Virus record (IMG/VR): IMGVR_UViG_3300036766_000032
Coordinates: 1 to 64,000 of that record
Strand: one strand, 5' to 3'
DNA: 64,000 nt
Source: a virus
This document shows, piece by piece, positions 32,621-51,917 of this stretch; the stretch's first letter is position 1; each line of letters begins with the position of its first letter. The notes under the pieces were generated by a model. That model did no database searches, was not told the origin of the DNA, and saw only the letters and a list, made by a program, of their open reading frames with translations. The translations under genes were made by a program, and so were the position numbers.

Positions 32621-33382
32621 TCAGTCTCGAATACCTCGGATACTTACACCGACGTCCAGAAGACTGGCCGAGCTGTACGCAGCCGGACGCGGGTTCCCCT
32701 CCATCCACGCCAAGATAGCGTCGTCGCTGTAAGCCGGGTTCCACGCGAAGAACCACGGTCTAAGCTTGGCATGCTCGACGAACGTACGCCACGCACCGCG
32801 TACGAACGTAAGCGTTTGAAGAGTGAATACCAAGTCCGTCGCTACACCCTGCCGAATCACGGAGCGACCCAGGAATTGTCCACCCTCCGAGACCTGATTG
32901 ACGTACTTGTCGTCGTGCGCCTCATGTGGGAGTATGAAGCCGGAACCCACCGCGCGATCCAACTCCAACGCTTGACCGATGAACGCCAGTCCGATGAACG
33001 GTGCACTGCCTGTGGACGTGATGACGAGACGCCAGTAACGATACGAGGCGGAAGTGAATGTGACGAACATCGGAGCGTTGGTAGTGGGAGTCTTCAGCAC
33101 CGACGCGTCGGTCCACGACGACCCATTCGAACTGTACTGAACCTTGACCGTACCACTGACGTCCGCGAGCGTGTGCGCTACTAGCGCGAAGTAGTCTGCG
33201 ACGTCCGCCGAACCGCGATCCACCGTGAGATAGGCGGTGCCTGCTGCCGTTGGCGACCACCCGTCTACTGTGTTCCAGTCGTAAGCGTTCTCCTTCGGGA
33301 ACCCCGATGCTTCACTGGACGCGGTGACTACGCTTCCACTCAGCGCGAAGAAGTTCTCATACCCGATGCGGGGTGCGCCCAT
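32621..33382 (-). CDS. Distal tail protein with discoidin-like domain
   Basis: A 253-residue protein. Residues about 15-135 follow an F5/8 type C (discoidin) pattern: PKENAYDWNTVDGWSP, an aromatic-rich core, and SYRYWRLVITS, often a carbohydrate-binding fold. The remainder resembles tail proteins found between tape measure and hub in phages with GTA-like tails. It probably forms a ring or side module at the tail end. Confidence 0.7.
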   Translation of the reverse strand: MGAPRIGYENFFALSGSVVTASSEASGFPKENAYDWNTVDGWSPTAAGTAYLTVDRGSADVADYFALVAHTLADVSGTVKVQYSSNGSSWTDASVLKTPTTNAPMFVTFTSASYRYWRLVITSTGSAPFIGLAFIGQALELDRAVGSGFILPHEAHDDKYVNQVSEGGQFLGRSVIRQGVATDLVFTLQTLTFVRGAWRTFVEHAKLRPWFFAWNPAYSDDAILAWMEGNPRPAAYSSASLLDVGVSIRGIRD

Positions 33383-33392
33383 CGTTATATCC

Positions 33393-35801
33393 TCACGTGA
33401 CTCTAATTCCAGTGATATTCATATCCCCGGCCTCATCCCGCAGACGCTCGAACAGCCGCCTCACCGCGCTCTTGCTGATTAAGTCGTCTCCGGAGCCTAG
33501 GTTGATCGACACCCGCGCACCCCGTGGAGCACCCAGCACGGGCGTCGCCGGTAGACTGGGTGCCGACGGCTGTGCAGTTACGGGGGGTGGAGCTCCGCCC
33601 CCTGCACCACCTCTGCCGCCGCCACCTCCCGCACCACCACCACCCGCCGCAGCGCCGCCCCCACCCCCACCCCCGCCGCCTCCACCGCCTCCATACGAGG
33701 TAGACCGGATCTTCTGCACGCGGGCCATACCGGCTGCGGTCGCCGTAGCGGCTGCCACTGCACCGAGCGCGTATCCGACGTAGGGAATGCCCGCTAGCGA
33801 TTTGAACGCTGCCTGCGCGCTCGCAATTGTATCAATGACGGCTTGCGCTATTGCGATCTTCTTGCCGATCTCGAATTGCTTCTTACCCCCACTCATCAGA
33901 ACACTGGCGATGTTCCCCATCATCTGACTGACGACCTGTGCTTTCCCCTCCCACCCGGACTCCCAGAGGGCGTACTCCGCCGATTGACCCGCGTTAGTAA
34001 TTGCTTGCGAGTCCGCACTGTATTGCTGTTGGAGCGCTAGCATGTCTTGGTTCTGCTGTTCCGTGCTCGCTTGGATCGCTCCGTGATACGTCGTCAACGC
34101 TTGAGCTTTCAGTGCGTAGCTAGCGTCGAGTTCCGCTTGCTGAGAAATCGCACCCTCCGATAACGAGGCACCTTGCGCTGCGATGGAGCTGGTCAACCCT
34201 ACCCCTTGAGAGTCGAGGTGTGCGTTGACCTTTGCTGTGTACTCCTCCCAGGATATGTTTCGCATTTGAAGCTGCTTGGTCAACTCGACTGTGTAGTCCT
34301 GCTCTTCGGTCAAACTCTTGTCAGTGTTTGGCATCGGACCCGGTGCTCCTGCGACTGGAGCCTCGAGCACGGGTAATAGTTGATTAGGATTCGGCATTCC
34401 TTTCTCAACCATCTTGTTCTGAATCCTGAGAAATTGCAGAGCAGATAGAACTCCACTATCCATGGCCTTCTGTGCCAGATCTAATTCCTGAGCGAACAGT
34501 TCGGCCGGTGTCTTCAGATCCTCTAACGCTTTCTTAGCGTAGTCGAACACTGTCAGATCTTCCTGGCTGAGGGGTTTGTTCATTTTTCCCCACGCTACGG
34601 ATACCTTGGCGGCTCCTTCTGCACCAACAGTAGCCATGTCGCGAAGCTTGTCAGTTAACTCTACGAGCTTGGTTTTTGTGTTGTCGAGACTCTTCCCGAA
34701 GTCTCCCCAAAATTTAGGGTCTACCTTCGCGGCGATCAGGCCGTCCTGTTGCTTCTTCATAGTCTTTAGGGATGCTTCGGTTTTAAGAATCTCTTCTTGA
34801 AGTTTCCCATAGGGTGCGTTAGCCAATAGGTCAACCCCATTCATCTTCATAGCTAAGATGAGTCGATTGACGTCATCCAGTTTAGAAGGATCTATGTCGG
34901 AGACATTAAATCCATATGCCTTAATGATAGCGGCGTTCGTTTCAATGACAGATGAGAACTTCTCTTGTGCTGTGCTGTTCTCTTTTGACATTGATATGAA
35001 GTTTCGCAGAGCGTTGGTGCCCTCCACGATTGCACCCGCGAACGTAGCCACGACGGAGGCGGCGGCAGCTTTCACGGTTCCCTCCAGCCGCGTGAACGCG
35101 TCATTAGCTTCTTGAAGCTTCGCTAAATCGGTAGCAGAAATCTTCTGACCCATCTCGTCTATGTCAGACGTGATCTTTTTAAATCCAGAGGAACCGGATT
35201 CGATAATCCCCGCGAGCTCCTTAGCTCCTCTACCGAACACTTCCGTAGCTGCACTGGTCTTTGCTGCTTGAGTCCCCAGTTTATTGATCGCATCAGCGGC
35301 TACAAAGAACGCTTCTTCCGGCTTAAGTGTAGACAGATAGTCAACACTCAGGCCAAGATCCTGAAACTTCTTAGTCGCCTCGACTCCTCCAGATGCTGCA
35401 TTGCCTAGTGTACGGTTGAAGATTGACATGGCCGAAGTCAAGTCCCCGGCGGACGCCCCGTTCAATTCGGCCATCTGGTTCAGTGCTTGAAGAGCGTCGG
35501 TAGTCACGCCCACCGAGCGCGCTGCATTGACCAAGGCGTCCCCGGATGCGATGACTTCCTTGGTGAAGTTGGCGATGTACGCCACCCCCGCCACGGCGAA
35601 CGCCGTCTGGATTGCTCCCTTGACTCCGGAGATCGCCCCCGTAATGGTGTCCAGGGACTTCCCTAGACTCTTCCCGAGTCCATCTCCCATGCCCTTACCG
35701 GCTTTCTCGGCCTCCTTCGAAGCAGCTTGGAATCCCTTCTTCAGATCCCCGAGGTCAGCCGTCAGGCGGTAGATTAAAGTTTCAACGTCTTCACTAGCCA
35801 T
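33393..35801 (-). CDS. Tape measure protein
   Basis: An 802-residue protein. It begins with the typical RLTADLGDLKKGFQAASKEAEKAGKGM, continues with hydrophobic membrane-active segments (residues about 55-90 and 670-715) and long helices, and ends with a run of about 30 Gly/Ala/Pro residues followed by a beta-like segment. It sets tail length and helps DNA delivery; at about 1.5 angstrom per residue the tail would be near 120 nm. The poly-Gly tract lies on very GC-skewed DNA (33650-33700) and may vary in length. Confidence 0.9.
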   Translation of the reverse strand: MASEDVETLIYRLTADLGDLKKGFQAASKEAEKAGKGMGDGLGKSLGKSLDTITGAISGVKGAIQTAFAVAGVAYIANFTKEVIASGDALVNAARSVGVTTDALQALNQMAELNGASAGDLTSAMSIFNRTLGNAASGGVEATKKFQDLGLSVDYLSTLKPEEAFFVAADAINKLGTQAAKTSAATEVFGRGAKELAGIIESGSSGFKKITSDIDEMGQKISATDLAKLQEANDAFTRLEGTVKAAAASVVATFAGAIVEGTNALRNFISMSKENSTAQEKFSSVIETNAAIIKAYGFNVSDIDPSKLDDVNRLILAMKMNGVDLLANAPYGKLQEEILKTEASLKTMKKQQDGLIAAKVDPKFWGDFGKSLDNTKTKLVELTDKLRDMATVGAEGAAKVSVAWGKMNKPLSQEDLTVFDYAKKALEDLKTPAELFAQELDLAQKAMDSGVLSALQFLRIQNKMVEKGMPNPNQLLPVLEAPVAGAPGPMPNTDKSLTEEQDYTVELTKQLQMRNISWEEYTAKVNAHLDSQGVGLTSSIAAQGASLSEGAISQQAELDASYALKAQALTTYHGAIQASTEQQNQDMLALQQQYSADSQAITNAGQSAEYALWESGWEGKAQVVSQMMGNIASVLMSGGKKQFEIGKKIAIAQAVIDTIASAQAAFKSLAGIPYVGYALGAVAAATATAAGMARVQKIRSTSYGGGGGGGGGGGGGAAAGGGGAGGGGGRGGAGGGAPPPVTAQPSAPSLPATPVLGAPRGARVSINLGSGDDLISKSAVRRLFERLRDEAGDMNITGIRVT

Positions 35802-35986: not shown

Positions 35987-36421
35987 CTACCCAGTGGCGT
36001 CCGTCGTCTGGGTTGGGACGTTTCCCGATTCACCTTCCGGCTTGGCTACGGGGGGAACGTCCGGGTCGATCCCTAATGCGCCGATCAAGAATCGAGCTAG
36101 AGTGTTCTTGCTGTCGCCGTGAGTCAGCGTCTTAATGATACCACTAGCGAAGATCTTATCACCCATCTGCTCCAGAGTGAGATCGAGCTTCGGATTAGCT
36201 GCGCTTGCCCCTGCCCAGACGATGGTTGTCATCTCGAATAGCGTCAGGCCGCGCGTACGCGTGGATACGACCAAGTCCCCCAAAGTTCGATCTAACCGGG
36301 CTTCGATCTCAACGACTGCCGTGTATGTCGGGCGGAGCGTGAACTTCTCCGACCCGACTTCGATTTCTACTTCACCTCTGAACTTGTTTGCCACCTTCGC
36401 TACCTCCTGTTGATTAAACAA
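35987..36421 (-). CDS. Tail assembly chaperone (GTA-type, Phage_TAC_11-like)
   Basis: A 144-residue protein. NKFRGEVEIEVGSEKFTLRPTY and the EARLDRTLGDLVV segment match the family that includes the tail chaperone of gene transfer agents. The last 25 residues are a linker rich in Pro, Glu and Thr. At codon 134 a GGGAAAC heptamer allows slippage to the -1 frame, adding 71 residues. The short and long forms should coat the tape measure before tube assembly. Confidence 0.82.
   Translation of the reverse strand: MFNQQEVAKVANKFRGEVEIEVGSEKFTLRPTYTAVVEIEARLDRTLGDLVVSTRTRGLTLFEMTTIVWAGASAANPKLDLTLEQMGDKIFASGIIKTLTHGDSKNTLARFLIGALGIDPDVPPVAKPEGESGNVPTQTTDATG
36020..36026 (-). promoter_or_regulatory. 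Programmed -1 frameshift site GGGAAAC
   Basis: Read on the - strand, codons TCG GGA AAC contain G GGA AAC, an X XXY YYZ heptamer; the lambda site is GGGAAAG. A -1 slip leads directly into the open frame CGT CCC AAC of the second chaperone, while the zero frame stops at 35987. Confidence 0.85.
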
Positions 36422-37838
36422 TTATGTCTGCGCACGCTAATCCATACCAAGGGAAAGAAGTGAGCGGTGTGAGACTTCCCGTGATGTCAGTGAACGTATT
36501 CCCATTATTAGTGGACCGAATCGTTTCTCCATTGAAGAACCGGATCACCCAAACCCCCCCCCTGTCGCACGCTACAGCAACGGGTAGATTGATCCCAGCC
36601 AGTGGGTAGAGGGGAACCGTTCCGGGGACACTACTCCCGATGTTCGTCCACGCACCCAATCCCACCTTCCTGACAATGACGAACGCGTCAACGGCTTCAG
36701 TCACGGCCCCGACGACGATCCACGTGTCTGTGGATACGCAGTAGTCCAACGACTGAAATTCAAATCCCAGTGTCCCGAGTCCTCCTCCCCAGAAATCTCC
36801 GGCTGCGACGTAGTCCAGCGCATACGTTGCCCCATCATCGTCCGACCTCCAAATGGTAGCCCATCCAGCCACTGCATAAGTCACACCATTAGCGCTCAAG
36901 ACGTCGGGGATAGTCAGGCCCCCGGGATATGGGAGAAAGAATGAGTTCTGACTCCACGAGTTACCGAAGTTGTCCGTGTAGTAAATGCCGTAGTCTGAAC
37001 CAACAACCACTCTTCCGGTGTCCGTTCTAGCCAACCCGAACAGATCATAGAGAGCATCCGTACTAGTGAAGTTCGCCGAGATGTCCGTCCATGTGAGACC
37101 GTCATCGAGTGAGCGGGCTACGTACCCCGCAACGCTAACTATGAGCCACGAACCGAACCCGTTCGAGATCACGCTACTGACATACGCCGCCCCCGGTATC
37201 GCCGGAACTGCGATCATCGCCCACGTAATCCCTCCGTCCGTGGATCGAGCGACGAAGTTTCCCGCAGTGCCCGCGAGCCACGTTCCAGTGACCGGATCTC
37301 GGTAGGGAATTCTACCGTTGAATGTGGGTCCACCGGGACCAGCTTGAAGAGTCCACGCCAATCCATTAGTTGATCTGTCTATCCGGTCAAAGTTCAACGC
37401 AATCCATTCTTGTGTGTAAGCGACGCCCGGAATGGGGCCGGAGCGCGCGAATATAGACATCTGGGAACTGACTAACGCGAGCGTCCATCCCTCTTCGGCG
37501 ACGTGCTCGCCCGGCTTCTCGATCGTAGCGACGAAGAAGTATCCGCTAACTACGTCCCCGTTCTCGAACATAACCCTGAACTCACCCCCCACGCCCGACA
37601 TCGATAGCTCCTCGATGTACTTCTGCGCGGCTGCATTCTTAAACACGGCCGCTCCACTGATACTAAGCTGACGCGCTCCAGCGTCACTCAGCAAGTCCCG
37701 CCAAGGTGCCTCGTCACTGGAGGTGGTATCGACAGTATCGTTGTCCACGACGATGGTGCGGGTTCGTATACCGGCGATCGTGGTGTATACCCCGCCGAGT
37801 AAGACCTTTACCAACACGTTTCGTCCCTTTGCGGCCAT
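36414..37838 (-). CDS. Tail-tube protein fused to Asp-box beta-propeller (short)
   Basis: A 474-residue protein; ATG 37838 is preferred to a TTG two codons earlier. Residues 1-130 are a tail-tube domain related to those at 37893 and 40138 (KGRNVLVKV, TVDTTSSDEAPWRDLL, GEFRVMFENGDVV). Residues about 140-474 hold about six Asp-box repeats such as STDGGITW, SLDDGLTW and SDDDGATY, which form the blades of sialidase/BNR-type propellers. No sialidase Arg triad could be assigned, so binding rather than catalysis is likely. The propeller would project from the tail surface. Confidence 0.85.
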   Translation of the reverse strand: MAAKGRNVLVKVLLGGVYTTIAGIRTRTIVVDNDTVDTTSSDEAPWRDLLSDAGARQLSISGAAVFKNAAAQKYIEELSMSGVGGEFRVMFENGDVVSGYFFVATIEKPGEHVAEEGWTLALVSSQMSIFARSGPIPGVAYTQEWIALNFDRIDRSTNGLAWTLQAGPGGPTFNGRIPYRDPVTGTWLAGTAGNFVARSTDGGITWAMIAVPAIPGAAYVSSVISNGFGSWLIVSVAGYVARSLDDGLTWTDISANFTSTDALYDLFGLARTDTGRVVVGSDYGIYYTDNFGNSWSQNSFFLPYPGGLTIPDVLSANGVTYAVAGWATIWRSDDDGATYALDYVAAGDFWGGGLGTLGFEFQSLDYCVSTDTWIVVGAVTEAVDAFVIVRKVGLGAWTNIGSSVPGTVPLYPLAGINLPVAVACDRGGVWVIRFFNGETIRSTNNGNTFTDITGSLTPLTSFPWYGLACADIIV

Positions 37839-37892
37839 CGTCAATCCTGTAGAGTCTTAAATGAAACACGTGGTTTGTTTGCCACCTGTTGA

Positions 37893-40133
37893 TTAAGCCA
37901 TTGCATCTACAAACCCAAGCCCACCGATACCGCTCACCAACGGTGGGTTTAAAAGCGTCGACCATGTCGATCCGTTATCCAGCGAATCCATGACATATAA
38001 GTCAAACCCAATCGCCCATCTTCCGTTCCCGAATTTCATGGTATACGCATGATCTATGCTCACTCCCGGTGTGATTTCGAACCACGTTAAACCATCATCG
38101 GTCGATTTCAGTATGAACAGTTCCCCACCCGCTTCGGCATGATTTCCAACAATCATCATCACGCCGGCATCGTTCGAAATGCCGCTTACAGTCGTTCCTG
38201 TATTTACAGTTCCGATCAATGTCCATGTCGACCCTTGATCCACTGATCGCCAAACGTCCGAACCTGTCGTCCCTGAAACGCAAATGATTATTCCGGTCGC
38301 GATGTTGTGAATTAAAGTTCCACCTCCACTGTTCGCCCAACCAACAGGGGTGACATTGACCCAGTTGAATCCGCCGTTTGTTGACTTATTCAAATAGGCA
38401 GTATTCCCCAGCGAAACATAATTGCCTGCCTGACCCGCAACGACGCCGACAATGTCTTCACTCGATATCGTCGGTCCTAAGCAGGGGGTCCATGTGAACC
38501 CCTCATCTACAGACACGACCGCTGCGACGCCGCCATATCCGACGATGACGATATCAGTCCCACGATGTCCGGCGATGTGGAATGTTCCATTCGGAAGATT
38601 TCCACCTTTCGAAATAATCGACCATCCAGTCTCACCTTTCCTGTGTGTGGTCGAATAGACGATTCTTTGTTCCCACACAACAAGCCAGCGGGTTCCTGTC
38701 CAGTACGGATCGAGTAAAATCGTGACCGGACTATCCGGGCTATACGTCAGGGATGATCGATTGCCGACACCCATCTGCGCGTTCAGTGTCCATGTGCCGC
38801 CATCATCGTCCGATGTGACCGTGTTGTAATTGTCATCGGTGAACGCGAAATATCCGTCCCCGTAAACAAGAGTCTGCACGTTGCCAAGCGCGACTGATGC
38901 TCCCAAATCAGTCCACGTCAGCCCGTTATCGTCTGACACCCATGTTCGCAAGTTCGTACCGCTGTCAACTCCGACGACTACAGCGCGGGAGCCGGGCTTG
39001 AACGCAACCTTTATGGGACTCTGGGTCGGCGAAAGAACTATCGCCCAAGTCGCGCCGCTATCTGTCGAACGAAAAACTGAAACGCTGTTACACGCGAGGA
39101 AGGTTCCGGTTATCGGGTCTACCGCTACGCCGCCACGTGACACCGTGCCCCATAATGAAGGGGTGACTACCGTCCAAGTCGCTCCAGCAACCGAACGGAT
39201 CACGCGCCCCTTACACGCGGCAACCCAATAAGACGCCCCACGCGCGAAGCCGAATATGCCGGTGTGATTCAATGATACCGACGATGCCAACCATGATTCA
39301 CCTTCGTCGTCGGAATAGTAAATTGCCTTTGCGGTTTCACCGCCTGAATAATAATTTCCGGCGACTATGCGTCCATTCACCGGATCGTACCCAAGCGCCC
39401 CGAACGAATAGCCTGCGCTCCCCAACGTTTGCCCGTTCCATCCCCAGAAATCAGCCCCTGCCTTATCGCTGGTCTTAATCACACCTCTAAAGATGTCGAC
39501 TACAACCCAATTATTCCCCGTCCATATCGCATTGGCATCGGTTTCAGCCGCGCCGCTGTGATAGAACGTGGTCGGATCAAAGCCATATGCTCCATTGTAC
39601 TCATCTGCCTGTGTCACGCCTGACGACATCAACACCCACGCCGCCGTAGTCAGTTGATAGAACGCGCTCCACCCATCAAAGTAAGCCGTCCAATCGACTT
39701 CCCCCGCATAGCCGATCAACAGCCAATTGGAGTACCGTGTGAGCGTCACCGGTCCTGTGCTCGACATCGCGAAGTCAAAGTTCTGTGTGTCCCCGACGCC
39801 TCCTGTATTCGACATGGACGTAACCCGGAAGCTGCCGTCGATGGTGTCGCCATTGCCGAATAAGATTCGGAACACTCCGCTGCGCAACCCCCACGCTAGG
39901 TCTTCCATGTGCTGCGTAGTCACTCCGGTCTTGTACGCACCAGACCCGGAGATGGAACACGATCGGAGTCCGTAGCCGCCTTGCTTCAACTGCCGCCAGT
40001 CTCCGGACTCCGAGTTCGTGATGTCCACTGTATCCCCGCCGATCGAGAACGACTTCGAGCGGACAGCGGCGACCGTAACGTACTGGCCGCTGATGTACGC
40101 CTTAAGAAGAAAGTCTCGGCTGCGAAAAGCCAT
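37893..40133 (-). CDS. Tail-tube protein fused to a large Asp-box beta-propeller
   Basis: A 746-residue protein. Residues 1-130 are a tail-tube domain (SRDFLLKAYISG, TVDITNSESGDWRQL, FRILFGNGDTIDG). The remaining 615 residues contain about ten Asp boxes, for example STDSGATW, SDDDGGTW, SVDEGFTW, STNGGFNW, STDDGLTW and SLDNGSTW, enough for a ten-bladed sortilin-like propeller or two smaller ones. The propeller-encoding DNA looks richer in A and T than its neighbours, a possible sign of separate origin. It could coat the tube as a minority subunit and bind host sugars. Confidence 0.85.
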   Translation of the reverse strand: MAFRSRDFLLKAYISGQYVTVAAVRSKSFSIGGDTVDITNSESGDWRQLKQGGYGLRSCSISGSGAYKTGVTTQHMEDLAWGLRSGVFRILFGNGDTIDGSFRVTSMSNTGGVGDTQNFDFAMSSTGPVTLTRYSNWLLIGYAGEVDWTAYFDGWSAFYQLTTAAWVLMSSGVTQADEYNGAYGFDPTTFYHSGAAETDANAIWTGNNWVVVDIFRGVIKTSDKAGADFWGWNGQTLGSAGYSFGALGYDPVNGRIVAGNYYSGGETAKAIYYSDDEGESWLASSVSLNHTGIFGFARGASYWVAACKGRVIRSVAGATWTVVTPSLWGTVSRGGVAVDPITGTFLACNSVSVFRSTDSGATWAIVLSPTQSPIKVAFKPGSRAVVVGVDSGTNLRTWVSDDNGLTWTDLGASVALGNVQTLVYGDGYFAFTDDNYNTVTSDDDGGTWTLNAQMGVGNRSSLTYSPDSPVTILLDPYWTGTRWLVVWEQRIVYSTTHRKGETGWSIISKGGNLPNGTFHIAGHRGTDIVIVGYGGVAAVVSVDEGFTWTPCLGPTISSEDIVGVVAGQAGNYVSLGNTAYLNKSTNGGFNWVNVTPVGWANSGGGTLIHNIATGIIICVSGTTGSDVWRSVDQGSTWTLIGTVNTGTTVSGISNDAGVMMIVGNHAEAGGELFILKSTDDGLTWFEITPGVSIDHAYTMKFGNGRWAIGFDLYVMDSLDNGSTWSTLLNPPLVSGIGGLGFVDAMA

Positions 40134-40137
40134 TTAA

Positions 40138-40551
40138 CTACGCTCGCATCAACGTTGCGATTCCTGCGCTCTCCATACTGACGGAGTAGGTCTGCTCTGA
40201 AGTGTGCTCACCCGCGTATTCAAACGAGGTTACCTGGAACAGCCCCTGAATGATGTCGCCGTTGCCGAACACCACTTGGAACTCCTCAATCAATCCACTG
40301 AATGCCAAGTTCTCAACGGTGTTGATCGCAGCCTCGTCCTTGAAGACGCCGGAGCCGCTTAGTGACACCGAGCGCAAGCCCGTGTCACTCATCAACTGAC
40401 GCCACGGAGCGTTGTCACTGTCTGTGATGTCCACCGAATCGTTGTTGATGCTGATCGTACGCGACCGGATACCTCCGAGCGTGCTAAATGTTTGCGGGGA
40501 AACTCCATTGCCTATCTTCAAAAGTATACTGCGTCCTTTCTGAGCGGTCAA
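40138..40551 (-). CDS. Major tail-tube protein (single-domain form)
   Basis: A 137-residue protein consisting only of the tail-tube domain found at the N termini of the next two gene products: KGRSILLKIGNG, SVDITDSDNAPWRQLM, SLSGSGVFKDEAA, FGNGDIIQGLFQV. Related to TP901-1-type tube proteins. As the simplest copy it is the likely main tube subunit. It is transcribed right after the glycosyltransferase and methyltransferase cassette. Confidence 0.82.
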   Translation of the reverse strand: MTAQKGRSILLKIGNGVSPQTFSTLGGIRSRTISINNDSVDITDSDNAPWRQLMSDTGLRSVSLSGSGVFKDEAAINTVENLAFSGLIEEFQVVFGNGDIIQGLFQVTSFEYAGEHTSEQTYSVSMESAGIATLMRA

Positions 40552-40568
40552 GATACACCTCCTAATTT

Positions 40569-41228
40569 TTAGTCGAATATGAAAACTCGGTCAGCCCGCA
40601 TTCGCAGAACCTCCCGAGCGCCTAGTGATACTAGATACTTCTCTACTGCGTCGTCCAGATATCCGAACCGCGCACCGTAGCCCTGCTTCACTTCTACAAT
40701 CACCATCGGGTGACAGGTTTTGATCATATACTCCGCGCCCTTCAACGCGAGCAGTTCCGCTCCTTCTATGTCCAGCTTCAACAGATCGACGTCCTGGATG
40801 TTTAAGTCATCGAGTCGGTTAACTGCCAGCGCGCCGCTCCCATTGACGTTCATCCGTATGTACTTCGAACCGGTGTTCCCATCCGCTTGGTGGCGCCGGT
40901 CCCATCCTATGGACGCTGTTCCGTTGACGTCACTCAGGGCGGATTCGCGGGTAGTGATGTTCGAACAGCCCCGCTCACGGATGTTGGCTACCAGACAGTC
41001 GAACGTCTCGCGGATGGGCTCAAAGGCGTACACGCGCTCGAATGATGCTGCCATGCTGACCGCCCACGTGCCGATGTGAGCTCCGCCGTCGATCGCCGTG
41101 CGGAAGTTGTTACAGAACGAAAGCGCTTGCGCTAGTCGGTCGAGTTGGAACCCTTCCGGGTCTGTCGCCAGAAACGCTTCAAAGTAATTATCGTCGTCTG
41201 GCAAGTTCCATCCATGAATCAGTCGCAT
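40569..41228 (-). CDS. FkbM-family methyltransferase
   Basis: A 219-residue protein with the SAM-binding IDGGAHIGTWAVSMA near residue 45, YAFEPIRETFDCL, and LLKLDIEGAELLALKGA near 150, the signature of FkbM O-methyltransferases. Members often methylate sugar hydroxyls. It is the last gene of the sugar cassette and lies 17 bases from the main tail-tube gene. Confidence 0.88.
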   Translation of the reverse strand: MRLIHGWNLPDDDNYFEAFLATDPEGFQLDRLAQALSFCNNFRTAIDGGAHIGTWAVSMAASFERVYAFEPIRETFDCLVANIRERGCSNITTRESALSDVNGTASIGWDRRHQADGNTGSKYIRMNVNGSGALAVNRLDDLNIQDVDLLKLDIEGAELLALKGAEYMIKTCHPMVIVEVKQGYGARFGYLDDAVEKYLVSLGAREVLRMRADRVFIFD

Positions 41229-41995
41229 GCGATATCTCCTCCAGGGAGTTCCGGTGATCGTCCCATACCCTTTCGATTCCCCTTCAGGTGGTCCATGTAG
41301 GTCGCCAGCGGGGACGTGATCCAGACATGCCCGTGTAACGCACGGGACAGGTTATTGGACTTTATGCGATAGCGGCTGCGCACCACGTCGAACACGAACG
41401 AGTCGTGCCACTCCGGCAGATCGAACACGGTGCCGTTAACATAGGTGTCTGCGAAGTCAGTTACGAAGTCGCGCACATCTGAGTTGCTGAGGTCGTAGCC
41501 CACGAAGCCGCACTCGCTATGCGTGCCCTTCCTGCCGAGGTGACACATTTGATAGCCCTCCGGGATGAGCTCGTCCAGGAATTCAGCAGGCATCGGCCTT
41601 AGCGCAACGACGTCCGAGTCGACCCAGAACAGCCGACGTTCTTTAAAGCGCAGCGACGCGTCGAATATGGCGAACACTTTACGGCAAAACTTGTTAGCGT
41701 CGAAGCGGAAGTTGTACCCGACGTCTATCTCCTTCGTCTTCCACTTACCGATGCACGAGTCCTTTCCAAACACGATCGGCGCGCGGTACTTCGCAACGAA
41801 CTTTCTGTAGTAAGGAATGTCTTCTATCTCGAATACGGAGCCTGCGTCAATGCCCGGCACTTCGACCTTGTCTTCACGATAAACTACCAAGTCAATCTCA
41901 TCGAGCGGCCAGTGCTTCTGCACGGACGTCATAAAGCGGCGCCCATACTGCTCGTAGCCCTTGGCGCTGAAGCTTGTCACCACGAGAGGTTTCAC
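41219..41995 (-). CDS. Glycosyltransferase-like protein (GT-A type)
   Basis: A 258-residue protein. MKPLVVTSFSAKGYEQYG is followed by a Rossmann-like half and LFWVDSDVVALRPMP near residue 120, where DSD is the metal- and nucleotide-sugar-binding DxD motif. A CGFVGYD segment and a late His (LHGHVW) resemble polypeptide or sugar transferases with a GT-A fold. The sugar and acceptor are unknown. Overlaps neighbours by four to ten bases. Confidence 0.75.
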   Translation of the reverse strand: MKPLVVTSFSAKGYEQYGRRFMTSVQKHWPLDEIDLVVYREDKVEVPGIDAGSVFEIEDIPYYRKFVAKYRAPIVFGKDSCIGKWKTKEIDVGYNFRFDANKFCRKVFAIFDASLRFKERRLFWVDSDVVALRPMPAEFLDELIPEGYQMCHLGRKGTHSECGFVGYDLSNSDVRDFVTDFADTYVNGTVFDLPEWHDSFVFDVVRSRYRIKSNNLSRALHGHVWITSPLATYMDHLKGNRKGMGRSPELPGGDIACD

Positions 41996-42510
41996 TCACC
42001 GTCCTCCGTGAAGGACAGTCTGTACGAGGTGTCTTTGGCGCTACGCCCCGCTGCCTCGCGGACGCGCTGCTGCCACCATGCGCGCTCCCGTATCGTGACA
42101 TGACAGTCGCGCCCGTCTGGCAGAGTCTTGTGTGACGGCGACGTGGAGACGCCCAAGAACACGAAGCGAGTAGCGAGTGAGAATACCGCGTCCAGCGTTG
42201 CGGCGACCTCTTCCTCAGGGACGTGCTCCATTACATCATTACAAATCACTCCGTCAAATGGTCCGTCGGGCAGAGTGCTCATGCCCATGACGCCGGGATC
42301 ATAGCAGTGCGGCAATATGCCACCCCACAGCATGTGATAGCGCCGGACGAGGTACTGATGCCCGCGCCCGCACCCGTAGTCGAGAAGCGTCTCCGCCTCC
42401 GTGACACGTACGAGCTCTGCGATCTCAGTCAAGTGTCGCTTGATAGAATGCCCGTGGAACCTCTTCGGGTTCGCGTGCATCTGCTGATATTGCTTAGCTA
42501 GCGATTCCAT
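41992..42510 (-). CDS. Class I SAM-dependent methyltransferase
   Basis: A 172-residue protein starting at ATG 42510, with GAGG five bases upstream. Motif I is LLDYGCGRGHQY near residue 43; VICNDVMEHVPEE near 93 is the usual motif IV region of small-molecule methyltransferases. The family commonly modifies sugars in glycosylation clusters, matching its neighbours. Confidence 0.8.
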   Translation of the reverse strand: MESLAKQYQQMHANPKRFHGHSIKRHLTEIAELVRVTEAETLLDYGCGRGHQYLVRRYHMLWGGILPHCYDPGVMGMSTLPDGPFDGVICNDVMEHVPEEEVAATLDAVFSLATRFVFLGVSTSPSHKTLPDGRDCHVTIRERAWWQQRVREAAGRSAKDTSYRLSFTEDGE

Positions 42511-42512
42511 GA

Positions 42513-43148
42513 TCACCTCACATCACTGCGAACGGTAGAGAGGAAATAGTCAGGCTTCTCCAGATCAACTACTCTGTACCCAAGCTCTCTCAGATACGCG
42601 AGAGACGTCATCTGTGCTGCGTTCATTCTTTTCTGAACCAGCCAGATAGCCGGGCGCGCCGAGATGATCAACTCGCGCGCGCCCTTCAGCACCTCCAACT
42701 CGGCGCCATTGGTATGTATCTTTAGCAGGTCTACGTTCTTGAGTTGCTCATCGTCTAAGCGCACACAAGGCACGTCGCCATCCACACTGGCGCCGCCAGC
42801 TTGCGACCCGATCCGGCCTTTCGCTCCGACCGAGAAGTGCACCAGCCCATTGACGGTCCCGCATGCTGTGTTCTTTACAACCACGTTCTTAAGAGGGCGG
42901 GTGTTCATCAAGAGCGCTTCGAAGCTCAGCGGGTCCGGCTCGTACGCAACGACGCGCTCGAACAGCCCCGCCAGCTCAGTAGTCACCGTGCCGACGAACG
43001 CCCCGATGTCTACTGCGGTGCGCCATGCGCGGCACACCTTCCGCAACCGTCCTGTCCTCCCCATCCGGTAGCCAACCTCCGCTTCGCGTAGCGTCTTCGT
43101 GCGTATTCCTGCATCCGACGGGTAGTACCAAGTGCCTATCTGAATCAT
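42513..43148 (-). CDS. FkbM-like methyltransferase, second copy
   Basis: A 211-residue protein. VDIGAFVGTVTTELA near residue 46, VAYEPDPLSFEALL and LLKIHTNGAELEVLKGA near 140 follow the FkbM pattern, though the usual DxEGAE is HTNGAE here, so the acidic residue before the Gly is lost. It may be divergent in activity. It is distinct from the FkbM copy at 40569. Confidence 0.75.
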   Translation of the reverse strand: MIQIGTWYYPSDAGIRTKTLREAEVGYRMGRTGRLRKVCRAWRTAVDIGAFVGTVTTELAGLFERVVAYEPDPLSFEALLMNTRPLKNVVVKNTACGTVNGLVHFSVGAKGRIGSQAGGASVDGDVPCVRLDDEQLKNVDLLKIHTNGAELEVLKGARELIISARPAIWLVQKRMNAAQMTSLAYLRELGYRVVDLEKPDYFLSTVRSDVR

Positions 43149-43861
43149 GGAATTGACCGTAACAGGTGCATGTTATTCTCTTCCGGTGTTGATCCATCTA
43201 CCATCTTACGCGCCTCAGCTATCCACTGGTCCGTGTACCCACTCTTCGCCCACTGCTTCCACCACGGACCCCCTAGGGTGTAGTGTACATTAGCTGGATC
43301 ACTGAGCGGTGGTTCTACATCCACTAGATGGTTCCACTTGGCGGGAAGCTCTCCTATCTCTTCATCCGCCAACCAACGGAGCTTTCGCAAGTAGTCCGCT
43401 GGAACGGCGTTCACCAGTTCCGGCGTCAGCACCTTACACCGCGCACAGTTGAAAATCATAAAGCTGGTCCAATTCTTTCGTTCATACTTCGTCTGCGCCT
43501 GTCCCAGCATCTTGGTCTCTTCCACCGGACGCTGGTCATGCTTCACGACCTGTACGGAATATGCCTTGCTGCGCAACGACCAGAGTTCCTCGACGTCGTC
43601 CAGGATCAACATATCGCAATCCATGAAGAGCGCGAACCCTTGGTAGTTCATCAGATATGGAACGAGGAACCGAGTGAAGCTGAACTCGGTCGATTGCACA
43701 TCGTTAGAACGGCCTTCGAAAACGCTACGGAGCTGCCGCTTAATGAGCGGGTGAATCGTCACCGGGAAACTCGCCCGTGTCATCAGGCTGTCCACCGCCA
43801 CGTGGAAGGCCAAGGATTCCGAAGAATCGTATCCAATGAAGACATCAATAGGAGACATCAC
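43145..43861 (-). CDS. GT8-like glycosyltransferase
   Basis: A 238-residue protein. IDVFIGYDSSESLAFHVA is a typical start; FMDCDMLILDDVEELW near residue 80 carries the DxD motif; YTLGGPWWK near 195 holds the conserved His-x-GG-type ending. This fits GT8 and related transferases that use nucleotide sugars. Start and stop overlap the neighbours. Confidence 0.8.
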   Translation of the reverse strand: MMSPIDVFIGYDSSESLAFHVAVDSLMTRASFPVTIHPLIKRQLRSVFEGRSNDVQSTEFSFTRFLVPYLMNYQGFALFMDCDMLILDDVEELWSLRSKAYSVQVVKHDQRPVEETKMLGQAQTKYERKNWTSFMIFNCARCKVLTPELVNAVPADYLRKLRWLADEEIGELPAKWNHLVDVEPPLSDPANVHYTLGGPWWKQWAKSGYTDQWIAEARKMVDGSTPEENNMHLLRSIP

Positions 43862-44679
43862 AGCGCCCTCCCCGGCTTCAGCCGTTCCCAGACCAGTCCG
43901 GATGCGATCTCCTCAAGCGTCCACTGCGAGTAGGCCAGATTGAACGCCCACTGTTCGCGGTCCGGCATTCGCGGCTCAGCTATACGATTCAGATCACTCT
44001 CAGCCACTGGCCACGCGATCGAGCCCTGATCCATCGCAATGACCGGGATGCCCTTCAGCACCGCCAGCCCCGCACTGGTTGAGTTCCACGTCACGACGGC
44101 CCAAGCAAAGTCCAGGTCGTCAGCGTACGACCGTACTGAGAACTGAGTTCCAGGTATCTTGGGTGTCTCGTGCACGGCTAGAGGATGAGGTCGGAACACG
44201 ACGGGGCGATCCGTCAGCTTCTGTATCGCATACGCAGTAGAGACGCACCACTCAACGATGTTGATATTCCGCACCGACCCGTCCCAAGGAACTTGCCCGA
44301 TCAGTAGGACGTGATCTCCGTTGCTGCGCCACGGCTCGATCTCAATACCAAAGTCGTACCAACGGTCAGCCGGACTGCACTCATTCATGAAATCAGCGTT
44401 CCCCATGATGTCATCCCAGCCGACTGTCCAGTGGCTGAAGCCGTCCCCGAGGACTCCATAGTCCAGGAACAGCGCGCGCCCGCCTTCCCGCTCTACGTGT
44501 TCGATGATCCAAGGGTGCGCGACAGAGGAGTAACCGAACACGACACCCACGTCGCAGTTAGTCGGCTTGTCGCGTATGTCCGCGATGCGGTAAGACTCGC
44601 CATTAGCCGCGAGTCCTTTCGCAAACGCCATCAAGAGTTTGTGCTGAATCTTGTCCCCGGTGGTGAAGATGGTGATCAT
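43858..44679 (-). CDS. GT-B/capsule-type transferase paralogue 1
   Basis: A 273-residue protein; ATG 44679 (MITIFTTGDK) is preferred because a longer frame would run 67 bases into the previous gene. Its C-terminal half (RPHPLAVHETPKIPG, WAVVTWNSTSAGLAVLKGIPVIAM, then YSQWTLEEIASG) resembles capsule polysaccharide synthesis proteins of the KpsC/KpsS type: the SxSA turn and the GIPVI strand form the nucleotide-sugar site. Three similar genes follow upstream. Confidence 0.75.
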   Translation of the reverse strand: MITIFTTGDKIQHKLLMAFAKGLAANGESYRIADIRDKPTNCDVGVVFGYSSVAHPWIIEHVEREGGRALFLDYGVLGDGFSHWTVGWDDIMGNADFMNECSPADRWYDFGIEIEPWRSNGDHVLLIGQVPWDGSVRNINIVEWCVSTAYAIQKLTDRPVVFRPHPLAVHETPKIPGTQFSVRSYADDLDFAWAVVTWNSTSAGLAVLKGIPVIAMDQGSIAWPVAESDLNRIAEPRMPDREQWAFNLAYSQWTLEEIASGLVWERLKPGRAL

Positions 44680-45542
44680 ACGAACCTCCTTACAAAGCGC
44701 CACATGGCGCCGCTCGCCAGCTCCGGAATGGTCCACTGCCACCAGCAGATGTTAGCGATCCACTTTTCCCGGTCTGCCTCACTTGGAACATATAGGGAGT
44801 TAATCATATCTAAACCCCGACTGGAAATCGGTCTAGCAATGCTTGGTCCCAGGGAGATAACAGGCACTCCGTCCAGCGCCGCTTCTACACACGAATTGCT
44901 GTTGTGAACTATGAACACGCGAGCATCCGCCAATATGGAAGACAGGGTCTCAGGAGGAGTAGAGAATCTGGAACCCTTTACGGGGGCCGCCCCTCCCCAA
45001 CTCTGCTTCGGACGATAGATTATCGGAGCGTCAGTCAGTTCAGTAATGGAGTCGATGACCAGATTCGCGTACTCCGTTGCGTCCCCTAATCCATGAAATT
45101 CCGCGTTCTTCTGCGAGGGACCGGCATACACCACGTTCAGTCCACATTTGCGAATGGGATGTATCATCTTCCCGAATGTTTCTTTGATTCGCTCCCACCT
45201 ATCCGCTGGTCGGGCATCCGTCATCAAGTAAGTCAGAGGTTGAAACCCATTCAAGCTGACCTTTACATATTCCATCGAGATACCATCCTCTATGGTGGAC
45301 GGAAGGCGCAAGTAGCCCTTGTCCACGTACAGCACGATCTTTCCAGCAGCTCGATATTCTTCGATCACTTGACGAGTTCTTCCAACGACTCCTCTAGTAA
45401 CCGCAACGTCGACTCCTGGCTCAATCCCAGCGTACTTGTCCCGAAACGAGACACGTACACCCTCCGCAGCAAACCCGCTAGCAATGGCTCCTAGCACGAC
45501 GTGATCAAAGCCTTTGTCAGACATGTAGATTGCCACTTTCAC
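44676..45542 (-). CDS. GT-B/capsule-type transferase paralogue 2
   Basis: A 288-residue relative of the neighbouring genes. PIIYRPKQSWGG, VFIVHNSNSCVEAALDGVPVISLGPSIARPIS and CWWQWTIPELASGAMW align with the same blocks of paralogue 1. The N-terminal half is different, as expected for the acceptor-binding side. It overlaps both neighbours by four bases. Confidence 0.75.
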   Translation of the reverse strand: MKVAIYMSDKGFDHVVLGAIASGFAAEGVRVSFRDKYAGIEPGVDVAVTRGVVGRTRQVIEEYRAAGKIVLYVDKGYLRLPSTIEDGISMEYVKVSLNGFQPLTYLMTDARPADRWERIKETFGKMIHPIRKCGLNVVYAGPSQKNAEFHGLGDATEYANLVIDSITELTDAPIIYRPKQSWGGAAPVKGSRFSTPPETLSSILADARVFIVHNSNSCVEAALDGVPVISLGPSIARPISSRGLDMINSLYVPSEADREKWIANICWWQWTIPELASGAMWRFVRRFV

Positions 45543-46372
45543 AAATGCTCCTCCAAGAACGACTGGAAGATACCGCGCCGCATCTCATAGACGTTCCACT
45601 GACAACACGCAACCTTCTCGAGAAAGTTCTCCACAGCTTGTACGTCCGGGCGTAGCGGAGTTTCTATCTTGTCCAGGGGACGGCTGAATCTCATCGCGAT
45701 GCCGTCATCCAAGAACACCGGGACTCCGCACTCCAGAGCCTTGATAGAAGCGTTCGAGTGATGGGACACCAGTGCCCACGCACCGGGCAGCACCGCCTCT
45801 AGTTCCCCGTCATGGTACTGCGTTCCGTCGATGGGTTGCCGGTCGTCGAACGTGTGCTTTGGAACGTACACGATCTTCCTGTCCGTGTGAAGCCGCAGCG
45901 TTTCGATCGTTTCCGTTTCCCACTGCTCCGGTGCGAATCCATAGACCTTTGCCGCCTTGGCGGACTGCCCTTGCAGGACGATGTGACCCTTCCCAGTCAC
46001 GGAGAAGTCCTTCAGTCGGGAAGCGAATTTCCGATATCGGCCCTTGGGGACTATCCGATCGAAGTTCGGAGTGCCGTGCAGACCGTCCACGGCGAATCGG
46101 TGATAGCCAGTCAATCGCCCACCCTCGGTCCTTCCCCAGTAGCCAAGATCAAGAAGCACCGTCCGGCGTCCTGCGGTCATGTACGCCTTGCGAATTTCGT
46201 TAAGTCTGCCGTGTAACCCGTAGAAGATCGCTACGTCGTGGTCAGGGACGGCGAATCCGCCGTGATATATCGCGCTCGGCGAAATATGAATGTGCGGATA
46301 GCCGCCTGTCACGGCTGAGCACAGCATCCGGGAGCGCTGCTTATCATCGTAATAGAAGGCGACTGTCTTCAC
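45539..46372 (-). CDS. GT-B/capsule-type transferase paralogue 3
   Basis: A 277-residue member of the series: KIVYVPKHTFDDRQPIDG, WALVSHHSNASIKALECGVPVFLDDG and CCQWNVYEMRRGIFQ match the other three. The N terminus MKTVAFYYDD is shorter in its first domain. Probably another transferase of a stepwise pathway. Confidence 0.75.
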   Translation of the reverse strand: MKTVAFYYDDKQRSRMLCSAVTGGYPHIHISPSAIYHGGFAVPDHDVAIFYGLHGRLNEIRKAYMTAGRRTVLLDLGYWGRTEGGRLTGYHRFAVDGLHGTPNFDRIVPKGRYRKFASRLKDFSVTGKGHIVLQGQSAKAAKVYGFAPEQWETETIETLRLHTDRKIVYVPKHTFDDRQPIDGTQYHDGELEAVLPGAWALVSHHSNASIKALECGVPVFLDDGIAMRFSRPLDKIETPLRPDVQAVENFLEKVACCQWNVYEMRRGIFQSFLEEHL

Positions 46373-47211
46373 TGGAGCAGCCTCCGGAACGGCTCACCAG
46401 ACTCAAGTTCTGCAACGGACCACTGCGAGTCGGCGACGTGCTCCAGGAAGTCTTCTCGGTCTTCCGGATAGTACGGAGACTCAATGGAGTCGATAGAGTG
46501 CATCGCCATGCGCCGCGCGATGCTGTACGGACCAATTACGAACACTGGTACACCGTGGATCAAAGCGAGCATAGCGGCCTTGGAGCTCCACGTCACCAGC
46601 GCCCAACAGTCTGCAAGGAGCTGCGGAATGGGCGCTCGGTCGATCCGCACGCCGTCCCCTGTGGTATAGGGGTCTTTGCTCCCAGGCTTCGGGTGAATGA
46701 GGATCGGGCGATCCGTACGGTGACGAAGTTCCGTATGAATTGATTCAAGCCATTTAACAGGCATAGACACCGTGGTGTCCCGATGCCCCATCTGGCCAAC
46801 AACAAGAATGTGACTGCCCGTCTTCCTCCATGGCTTGATCTCGTGCCCGAGGGCGGCGAAGCGCTCTCGGTTATCGGAGCCGTGGTCCCCCCTCCCGTTG
46901 TAGCCTTCCCGCCCTACCGTGTAGACCTTCCTACCGTCTACAGGAGTCACATACCCGTTTTCCATGACGAGCCACGAACCTCCACCAGCGGCGTGCCCCT
47001 TTCCGAGCTTCTCGGCTAGAGAGCCACGCCACGGAGTCCACGTCACCAGCGCGCATTCGGGTCGGCGGTCGAACATGTTGGTTCGTCTTAGACCCATGAC
47101 AGTCATACCCTTGTCGATGCTCGCGTGGGGATACGGGTCTACCCTCCGAACCATGTTAAAGAAAGAGGTCGCGGAGGTCATGTGTGGGGGCCTACGATGC
47201 GAAGAATGCAT
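46369..47211 (-). CDS. GT-B/capsule-type transferase paralogue 4
   Basis: Up to 280 residues; the true start is uncertain (ATG 47211 or 47181). PILIHPKPGSKDPY, CWALVTWSSKAAMLALIHGVPVFVIGP and DSQWSVAELESGEPF place it in the same family as the three genes after it. About 78 bases without a gene separate it from the DUF115-like gene; I see nothing clear in that spacer. Confidence 0.7.
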   Translation of the reverse strand: MHSSHRRPPHMTSATSFFNMVRRVDPYPHASIDKGMTVMGLRRTNMFDRRPECALVTWTPWRGSLAEKLGKGHAAGGGSWLVMENGYVTPVDGRKVYTVGREGYNGRGDHGSDNRERFAALGHEIKPWRKTGSHILVVGQMGHRDTTVSMPVKWLESIHTELRHRTDRPILIHPKPGSKDPYTTGDGVRIDRAPIPQLLADCWALVTWSSKAAMLALIHGVPVFVIGPYSIARRMAMHSIDSIESPYYPEDREDFLEHVADSQWSVAELESGEPFRRLLQ

Positions 47212-47289
47212 GTACCTAGAGCCGGAGGAATAGCTCGCAGATTTCCGGATTTTAGAAGCTCACGTGTGTTCTCTTCACGCTGATGGACT

Positions 47290-47844
47290 CTAGCAAAATT
47301 CATCTATCGTCTCTTTTCTAAAGCACTCAAGGGCTGAGTCTGGGTTAGCGTTCACGATGTCTATTCCCAGTTCCTTAAGAGGTTCGACCAGCGTGGGGAA
47401 GAAGGCGATCATCTTCTCTATACGCCCGGACCGCACCGGATAGCCGTCATGCCAATGCGTCCGGTCCGTGTACTTCATGTCATAGCCTAGCAGAACGATC
47501 TTGCTTGGCTTCATCTGAGCCGCCAAGTTGATCGCTGCGAATCCGCTAGAATTGCCGGTGCGTAGCTGTCCAGGAATCAAGTCTAGCCCAAATGTCCCGG
47601 TGGCTCTGTAGTTAATCACGTCCTTGTCCTTAACCTGTCTGTCCACGGTGATCTTTATCCCTGCGTGGAGGCGGAGCGCCCCCGCGTACCAGTTCCAGAA
47701 CCGCGCATCGCTGAAGTATACGTACTCGGCGCATGGGACGACCTCAAACGCACGGTTGACGGCGATGACGAACTGCCCCTTCAGCACGCGCCAATCGAAC
47801 CCCACCAATGAAGGGCCACCACCGACACAGAAGATGGTCTTCAT
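47290..47844 (-). CDS. DUF115/MAF-like protein
   Basis: A 184-residue protein. CVGGGPSLVGFDWRVLKGQFVIAVNRA at the N terminus, YVYFSDARFW near residue 60, GNSSGFAAINLA near 117 and IVLLGYDMKYTDRTHWHDG near 135 follow the DUF115 / motility-accessory-factor pattern. Relatives act in flagellin glycosylation with nonulosonic acids. Here it opens the sugar cassette, four bases after the tail terminator, and supports a protein-glycosylation role. Confidence 0.75.
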   Translation of the reverse strand: MKTIFCVGGGPSLVGFDWRVLKGQFVIAVNRAFEVVPCAEYVYFSDARFWNWYAGALRLHAGIKITVDRQVKDKDVINYRATGTFGLDLIPGQLRTGNSSGFAAINLAAQMKPSKIVLLGYDMKYTDRTHWHDGYPVRSGRIEKMIAFFPTLVEPLKELGIDIVNANPDSALECFRKETIDEFC

Positions 47845-48224
47845 ACGCGCACCCGAAGCGTCTTGAAGTTTAGTGACAGCTTCGGGCGATAATTTGCATC
47901 GTACCCTAACGGAGTCGGTCCGCTGCTCACGTAGACGAACGTGGAGTTTGGCAGGGCGGAGTCGTTAAGCGCTGCGAACACTCCGTCTAGCTTGGTCCGA
48001 GCATCTTCATACCTGTACGCCGCTGCGCGGACCTGTATCTGAAACGTTATCTCATCCACCCGCGTACCTTCCGTCTGGTCCGCTGGTTCGCCCCCCGTCT
48101 CTGTTACGGCTACCGCTTGATCCGGATCGGGAGGTAGGTAGCCGAGGAATAGCGTCCAGCCGGTTACACCGCCGACGACTCCCGCATTGACCAGAACAGT
48201 TTGAATGTCCGTCAGGAGACTCAC
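47841..48224 (-). CDS. Tail terminator / minor capsid protein
   Basis: A 127-residue protein with PDPDQAVAVTETGG near residue 33 and FQIQVRAAAYRYEDAR near 60, the pattern of tail terminators called bacteriophage minor capsid protein. It caps the finished tail tube and joins it to the head. Encoded between the HK97 gp10-like gene and the sugar cassette. Confidence 0.8.
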   Translation of the reverse strand: MSLLTDIQTVLVNAGVVGGVTGWTLFLGYLPPDPDQAVAVTETGGEPADQTEGTRVDEITFQIQVRAAAYRYEDARTKLDGVFAALNDSALPNSTFVYVSSGPTPLGYDANYRPKLSLNFKTLRVRV

Positions 48225-50960: not shown

Positions 50961-51917
50961 TTACGCCACCGCGCCGCTGAAGAAGTAGCCTGCGTCCGTC
51001 ATGACCACTTTCTGATCATAAGAGAACTCGCCTTCCACGCGGTCCGACTCCAGGTGTTCCATACGGAAGCGCTTAACACGCACGCCACCATTGGCACCTG
51101 AGAACTTCGACCATGTGAACGAGTATCCTGCCGACGGAACCATCAGCCCAGGACTTGGCGCTACGAAGCACAACAGCGCATGCTTGCCAAGTACGAACGC
51201 GTCGACGTCGGTCGCAGCGAGCTCTTCGCTCGTCGTGTAAGACGCTTGTGCTACGATGTACCGATCCACTTCGAAGAAGCGCGCCAATAACGCCGTAGTG
51301 ATCGCATCCGACGTGGTGTGCTTGTACCGATCGGTTATGATCGGATGACGTTTCAAAGCTTGATGCACATCGTACCCGACCACGAGAGTGTTCGGATTCA
51401 GACCGAGAGCCTTGCGGATCTTGGTCTTGCCAGCGTCGATGTCTGCTTCCGGGTCGGATCCACCGTCATCCCAAAGTGCGAAGTCGGTGCTGCCGGTCTT
51501 ATCCGTTCCCCACACGCTGGTGGTGAAATACTTAGTTCCCCAGTTGACTTCTTTCTGGATCAGCATCTGCTGAGTGATGAACTCAGTGGCGCTGCGATCC
51601 ATGTCCAACGAAGGGTCCGCGTTGTTACGGATCTGGTCCGGAACGTCGTGGTGGAACGCGTATACCTCCGCTTTGTAAGTGTCAGTGTCCACGTTGAAGC
51701 CGCTACCGGCGGATTCAGCGCCAGGAGCACGAGGGCGCGCGTTGTTACGACGGAAGTCCCGGCTGCGATACTTGAAATAAGAATCGGACTGGAACTCCAC
51801 GGGAACTGCCGGAAATACTTGCGTCGCGACGAAGTCGGATGCACTCTGAATAGCAGCGACAGCAATGTTAGTCAGTGAACGTACGACGTGCACGTCACCT
51901 CGTGTGGGTTGCGGCAT
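50961..51917 (-). CDS. Major capsid protein
   Basis: A 318-residue protein with the layout of HK97-fold major capsid proteins of the group with a short N arm: SLTNIAVAAIQSASDFVATQVFPAVPV at the start, a HHDVPDQIRNNAD spine helix, LGLNPNTLVVGYDVHQALKRHP near residue 175, and a beta P-domain ending in FFSGAVA. It follows the scaffold and decoration genes as expected and has a strong AGGAGGAT ribosome site. Confidence 0.85.
   Translation of the reverse strand: MPQPTRGDVHVVRSLTNIAVAAIQSASDFVATQVFPAVPVEFQSDSYFKYRSRDFRRNNARPRAPGAESAGSGFNVDTDTYKAEVYAFHHDVPDQIRNNADPSLDMDRSATEFITQQMLIQKEVNWGTKYFTTSVWGTDKTGSTDFALWDDGGSDPEADIDAGKTKIRKALGLNPNTLVVGYDVHQALKRHPIITDRYKHTTSDAITTALLARFFEVDRYIVAQASYTTSEELAATDVDAFVLGKHALLCFVAPSPGLMVPSAGYSFTWSKFSGANGGVRVKRFRMEHLESDRVEGEFSYDQKVVMTDAGYFFSGAVA

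What the first reader, a model, noticed from the sequence alone, without database searches (positions are those of the whole stretch)
36414..40551. Three tail-tube paralogues, two carrying C-terminal Asp-box beta-propellers
All three products begin with the same 130-residue tube domain (for instance SVDITDSDNAPWRQL, TVDITNSESGDWRQL and TVDTTSSDEAPWRDL). The first is the bare domain; the other two add about 615 and 340 residues with ten and six Asp boxes (S.D.G.TW). Tube subunits with such large surface domains would make a tail studded with lectin-like propellers. Their position next to the sugar cassette suggests that the propellers or tube are the glycosylation target, or that the propeller binds the same sugars.
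Basis: seen in the sequence. Interest (0 to 1): 0.88.

Follow-up and report, generated by a model that had tools for sequence, protein, structure and literature searches.

The report
Tail-tube paralogues carrying beta-propeller domains
An uncultured siphovirus carries one normal tail-tube gene plus two divergent copies fused to large Asp-box beta-propellers, and in sister phages the propeller half is swapped while the tube half is conserved, which suggests exchangeable, probably sugar-binding, decorations built into the tail.

Summary
T1 (137 aa), T2 (746 aa) and T3 (476 aa) all begin with the RcGTA-type tail-tube domain (Pfam PF06199; PDB 6tba). T2 and T3 add 612 and 341 residues of about 44-residue Asp-box blades: about 14 blades (two propellers) and about 7 (one). 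Structure models support the tube fold well and the propellers only in part.

Two sister phages carry a propeller-tube with a 7-blade-sized extension, placed after the tape measure gene. DNA homology between them (79-85%) stops at the tube/propeller border and resumes at the next gene; tube halves are 88% identical, propellers 30%. Swapping with anchor conservation is typical of adhesion modules. T1 has a strong ribosome-binding site; T2 and T3 do not, so they are probably minority subunits. The sugar cassette also occurs in relatives without propeller-tubes, so it is not specific to them.

Best reading: T2 and T3 are minor decorated tube subunits displaying swappable, probably glycan-binding, propellers. 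That works like the decorated tails of lambda, SPP1 and lactococcal 936 phages, but with separate paralogous genes and much larger domains. Virion incorporation and binding are inferred, not shown.

The parts
40138..40551 (-). T1, bare tail-tube (major tail) protein, 137 aa, TTG start
   Evidence: PF06199 1.2e-34, TIGR02126 above cut-off, PDB 6tba 4.9e-28
40556..40563 (-). Strong Shine-Dalgarno AGGAGGTG of T1
   Evidence: sequence
37893..40133 (-). T2, tube paralogue with C-terminal Asp-box repeats, 746 aa; starts 4 nt after the T1 stop, no Shine-Dalgarno
39735..40133 (-). T2 tube domain (about residues 1-133)
   Evidence: PF06199 1.4e-15; fold match to RcGTA tube, TM 0.66 by target length
37896..39734 (-). 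T2 extension, about 14 blade lengths (613 aa), probably two 7-bladed propellers
   Evidence: 9 strict Asp boxes, blade profile, partial fold matches to YCF48, GH74, sortilin and pseudaminidase
36414..37844 (-). T3, tube paralogue with C-terminal Asp-box repeats, 476 aa; TTG start, or ATG at 37838
37434..37844 (-). T3 tube domain (residues 1-137)
   Evidence: PDB 6tba 5.5e-20
36417..37439 (-). T3 extension, about 7 blades (341 aa)
   Evidence: blade profile, Asp boxes
35987..36421 (-). Tail assembly chaperone, GTA gp10-like; overlaps the end of T3
   Evidence: PF11836 4.3e-07
33393..35801 (-). Tape measure protein, 802 aa
   Evidence: phrog_9483 6.4e-55
32621..33382 (-). Protein with F5/8 type C (discoidin) domain at the distal-tail position; a second possible sugar-binding tail part
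   Evidence: PF00754 2.6e-10

Best explanation
T2 and T3 are minority tail-tube subunits. Their N-terminal domain co-assembles with T1 in the tail tube, and their C-terminal Asp-box propellers project from the tube surface as exchangeable adhesion modules that bind (probably reversibly) host surface glycans, raising the chance of productive attachment. Shown: tube homology, Asp-box repeat architecture, intact reading frames, intact tube signature, exchange of the propeller half between sister phages. Inferred: incorporation into the virion, outward display, low copy number, glycan ligand.
For: Tube homology of all three, with the conserved long loop (VD.T.S...WR.L...G.R) that stacks rings in RcGTA (PMC7296036). 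The tube core of both models is confident (pLDDT about 80-95) and matches 6tba. Asp-box blades far beyond chance. Sister phages: DNA homology breaks at the tube/propeller border, tube 88% against propeller 30% amino-acid identity, dN/dS 0.10 on the tube half. Other tube paralogues in this fold family carry other surface or carbohydrate-type domains (Fn3_assoc/CHB_HEX_C, weakly arabinofuranosidase-like). Propellers related to these occur in other phage proteins beside tail-fibre genes. In lactococcal 936 phages a tube extension (TpeX) bound host cells and not non-hosts (PMC6669499). Ribosome-binding-site asymmetry favours T1 as the bulk subunit.
Against: No virion data and no binding data. The propellers are modelled only in part (mean pLDDT 54 and 61). 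T2 and T3 tube domains sit on long branches, so their interfaces may have changed. The pattern is rare: three genotypes with a seen extension, plus one contig cut before it. Asp-box propellers also bind proteins or are enzymes.
Confidence: 0.55

Rival explanations
1. The propeller-tubes form one or a few dedicated rings at the tail tip (between tube and distal tail protein) and act as a tip-located receptor-binding crown, not as decorations along the shaft.
For: In L009 and L012 (and the cut-off copy in L008) the gene lies between tape measure and the F5/8C distal-tail-position gene; T2 groups with those copies (97/93 in the larger tree). Distal tail proteins share the tube fold (PMC7296036).
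Against: In this window T2 and T3 lie directly behind T1, before the chaperone gene; they resemble tube (40-45%) rather than distal tail proteins; the clade support drops to 65/88 in the smaller tree.
Confidence: 0.25
2. The propellers are enzymes (sialidase-, GH74- or depolymerase-like) that trim surface polysaccharide along the tail.
For: Weak similarity to BNR glycosyl hydrolases and fold matches to GH74 enzymes and a pseudaminidase.
Against: All hits are below curated family cut-offs; Asp boxes are structural and not catalytic (established knowledge); 30% identity between sister phages speaks against one conserved active site. Catalytic residues were not tested.
Confidence: 0.1
3. The propellers or the tube are the target of the neighbouring sugar cassette, or bind the sugar it makes.
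For: Adjacency: cassette at 40569-47211, with FkbM methyltransferases and glycosyltransferase-like genes.
Against: The same cassette precedes the tube gene in relatives without propeller-tubes in the sequence held (L004, L006, L018; partly L017). Glycosylation of the bare tube itself is not excluded.
Confidence: 0.07
4. T2 and T3 are not virion parts: decayed duplicates, or decoys for tube-sensing defence such as DSR2.
For: Long branches; DSR2 senses tail-tube proteins (abstracts).
Against: Frames are intact, the tube signature is kept, and the sister copies' tube half is under purifying selection (dN/dS 0.10).
Confidence: 0.05

Closest known systems
RcGTA tail tube protein Rcc01691 (PDB 6tba) and the TP901-1-type major tail proteins (PF06199, TIGR02126)
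   Same: Same tube domain, same neighbouring chaperone family (GTA gp10)
   Different: RcGTA tube is bare; none of the 80 alphaproteobacterial or other bacterial loci fetched had a second tube gene or an extension
SPP1 gp17.1/gp17.1* (FN3 domain added by frameshift, 3:1 ratio; PMC8718954)
   Same: Bare and decorated tube subunits in one tail; decoration thought to touch cell-wall sugars
   Different: Here separate paralogous genes, two different decorated subunits, and 340-610 aa of Asp-box repeats instead of one FN3 domain
Lactococcal 936 phage major tail protein TpeX extensions (PMC6669499)
   Same: Large variable C-terminal module on the tube protein; TpeX binds host cells specifically
   Different: BppA-like carbohydrate-binding module made by frameshift; here Asp-box propellers on paralogues
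Lambda gpV, T5 pb6, YSD1_22 and JBD30 major tail proteins with Ig-like C-terminal or decoration domains
   Same: Extra domain projecting from the tube surface
   Different: Every subunit carries one small Ig-like domain; here only the two extra paralogues carry a big propeller
Actinophages annotated with two major tail proteins (e.g. Damascus gp17 and gp19; PMC11080557)
   Same: More than one major tail gene per phage
   Different: The text read mentions no propeller extension

Membership tests
RcGTA/TP901-1-type tail tube protein | PF06199 tube domain over its full length | tested here: met
   All three above the Pfam cut-off, profile covered nearly end to end
RcGTA/TP901-1-type tail tube protein | Tube fold | tested here: met
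   T2 and T3 models match 6tba and 6toa chains, probability 1.00, TM by target 0.62-0.66; tube core pLDDT about 80-95, loop low
RcGTA/TP901-1-type tail tube protein | Polymerises into the tube of the virion | not testable with these tools
   Needs proteomics or microscopy
Asp-box (BNR) beta-propeller | Repeated S/T-x-D-x-G-x-T-W boxes at blade spacing | tested here: met
   9 and 4 strict boxes against less than 0.05 by chance; blades about 40-46 aa apart
Asp-box (BNR) beta-propeller | Closed propeller fold | tested here: inconclusive
   Only parts of each propeller are modelled with confidence; those match YCF48, sortilin and GH74
Asp-box (BNR) beta-propeller | Pfam curated cut-off for a BNR family | tested here: not met
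   Best hits PF15902, PF13088 and PF02012 are significant but under cut-off
Frameshift-decorated tube (SPP1, 936 phages) | Extension made by frameshift from the tube gene | tested here: not met
   T2 and T3 are complete separate genes with their own tube domain
Decorated-tube adhesion module | Extension binds host surface | not testable with these tools
   Inferred only

The most novel reading that the evidence does not exclude
A tail built from three tube paralogues in which two carry exchangeable beta-propellers that are a main host-recognition device, so that host range is changed by swapping the propeller at a fixed border while the tube anchor stays, i.e. a receptor-binding system made of tube subunits rather than of fibres.
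Probability: 0.2. Interest if true: 0.75.

Novelty: new variant of a known kind. Interest (0 to 1): 0.57.

Why it matters
Decorated phage tails are known, but with small Ig-like or carbohydrate-binding modules on the tube protein, or added by frameshift. Here gene duplication provides separate decorated subunits with some of the largest tube extensions I know of, and related phages show the propeller being swapped at a clean domain border. That makes the old question of what tail decorations are for directly testable: propellers from sister phages can be expressed and compared for binding.

Tried and rejected
Searching viral contigs with T2 and T3 whole gave no relatives; only the tube domain finds them. 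No phage record in the INPHARED set has tube plus propeller: hits cover the tube domain or propellers in other proteins. L082 looked like a hit to the propeller-type tube but is an ordinary GTA-like cluster with a bare tube. L049 and L056 weak 'second tubes' look like distal tail proteins. The L009 propeller has no relative found beyond its near-identical copy; L012-type propellers have distant relatives in proteins without a tube domain. One origin for all propeller-tubes could be neither shown nor excluded (p-AU 0.21). No Rfam element in 36000-48000.

Full report
OBSERVATION. The three ORFs exist where stated, on the minus strand, in the order T1 (40551-40138), T2 (40133-37893), T3 (37844-36414). 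All three N-termini are tail-tube domains: Pfam Phage_tail_2 at 1.2e-34, 1.4e-15 and 6.6e-20, PHROG major tail protein, and the RcGTA tube protein of known structure. T2 and T3 domains are 40% and 45% identical to T1, and the long loop that stacks rings in RcGTA (VD.T.S...WR.L...G.R) is kept (PMC7296036). T2 and T3 add 612 and 341 residues. Strict Asp boxes number 9 and 4, against 0.045 and 0.020 in shuffled extensions. A blade profile gives repeats about 40-46 residues apart, some without a good Asp box; the lengths fit about 14 blades in T2 and 7 in T3.

STRUCTURE. The AlphaFold2 models have a confident tube core (pLDDT about 80-95, stacking loop low), and Foldseek finds RcGTA tube chains for both. 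The propellers are modelled only in part (mean pLDDT 54 for T2, 61 for T3). The T2 model matches YCF48, sortilin, GH74 enzymes and a pseudaminidase, all propeller proteins. A closed propeller is therefore likely but not shown.

SURROUNDINGS. Downstream come the GTA gp10-like chaperone, tape measure, a protein with an F5/8 type C domain at the distal-tail position, and a tail-fibre-like protein. Upstream is the sugar cassette, then connector and head genes. The major head protein is closest to those of Pseudomonas phage RSP and Roseobacter phages RDJL (43-47% identity). T1 has a strong Shine-Dalgarno (AGGAGGTG). T2 starts 4 nt after the T1 stop without one, and T3 has a weak one. I infer that T1 is the bulk subunit.

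RELATIVES. Scans with the tube alignment gave 72 viral and 80 bacterial loci. None of the 80 bacterial loci has a second tube gene or an extension in the fetched stretch. Among the closest viruses, L009 (99.98% identical to L010) and L012 (identical to L013) have the bare tube gene followed by chaperone, tape measure, and then a second tube gene with about 300 extra residues and Asp boxes, before the F5/8C gene. L008 has a second tube gene at the same place but the contig ends inside it, so its extension is not seen. L004, L006, L017 and L018 have one tube only.

PROPELLER EXCHANGE. Between L009 and L012, DNA homology of 79% runs from the tape measure into the propeller-tube gene and ends at nt 9730, the end of the tube domain. 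It resumes at 10674, the start of the next gene. The tube half is 88% identical and under purifying selection (dN/dS 0.10; bare tube 0.04). The propeller half is 30% identical with saturated synonymous sites, while the neighbouring genes are 78-94% identical. Either replacement or very rapid divergence confined to the propeller explains this; the abrupt border favours replacement. This is how adhesion modules usually behave (established knowledge of phage receptor-binding proteins).

HISTORY. T2 groups with the L009/L012/L008 copies with good support in the larger tree (97/93) but weakly in the smaller one (65/88). T3 does not group with them, yet one origin is not rejected (p-AU 0.21). Both are long branches. 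T2 and the sister copies lie at different places in the tail operon, so the gene has moved or arisen more than once. Decoration of tube paralogues with other domains also occurs in more distant phages: Fn3_assoc/CHB_HEX_C in L039, a weakly arabinofuranosidase-like extension in L066, an unassigned 88-residue extension in L071; L016 has tandem bare tubes.

THE SUGAR CASSETTE. Homologues of the FkbM, glycosyltransferase-like and capsule-type genes precede the tube gene in most viruses of this lineage (L004-L015 and L018, not all genes in every truncated contig; partly L017), with or without propeller-tubes, and in none of the 80 bacterial loci. It is thus not specific to the propellers. Whether it modifies the bare tube, another virion part or the host surface is open.

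MECHANISM. Most likely T2 and T3 insert as minority subunits and hold propellers outside the tube, adding many weak contacts to surface glycans. Precedents: lambda, T5 and YSD1 Ig-like domains, SPP1 FN3 by frameshift in a 3:1 ratio (PMC8718954), and lactococcal TpeX, which bound host but not non-host cells (PMC6669499). A tip ring is the main rival, because of the gene position in the sister phages. Enzymatic activity, the cassette link and a non-virion role are less likely.

VERDICT. Observation confirmed; interpretation partly supported. This is a new variant of a known kind (decorated tail tubes): separate paralogous genes, giant Asp-box extensions and a clean exchange border. Nothing listed in five literature searches describes a propeller on a tube protein (judged from titles, abstract openings and the passages opened), and the library is incomplete.

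Noticed in passing
40569-47211 (-): Sugar cassette with two FkbM methyltransferases, another methyltransferase, a GT8-like gene and four tandem paralogous capsule-type genes; conserved upstream of the tube gene across this viral lineage and absent from the GTA loci.
   Followed up: partly
32621-33382 (-): F5/8 type C (discoidin) domain in the protein at the distal-tail position; a second possible sugar-binding part of the tail.
   Followed up: no
L016 5998-6835 and following: Two complete and one cut-off tube domain in tandem, the complete ones without extension.
   Followed up: no
L039 1096-1929; L066 6001-7323; L071 2161-2808: Tube genes or paralogues with other extensions (Fn3_assoc/CHB_HEX_C, weakly arabinofuranosidase-like, unassigned): decoration of tube copies seems recurrent.
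   Followed up: partly
53404-55671 (-): 755-aa protein with a capsid maturation protease domain at its C-terminus and a stretch resembling ATP-dependent DNA ligase (phrog_114, residues 92-285).
   Followed up: no
50961-51917 (-): Major head protein nearest to those of Pseudomonas phage RSP and Roseobacter phages RDJL, while the tube is GTA-like: head and tail may have different histories.
   Followed up: no
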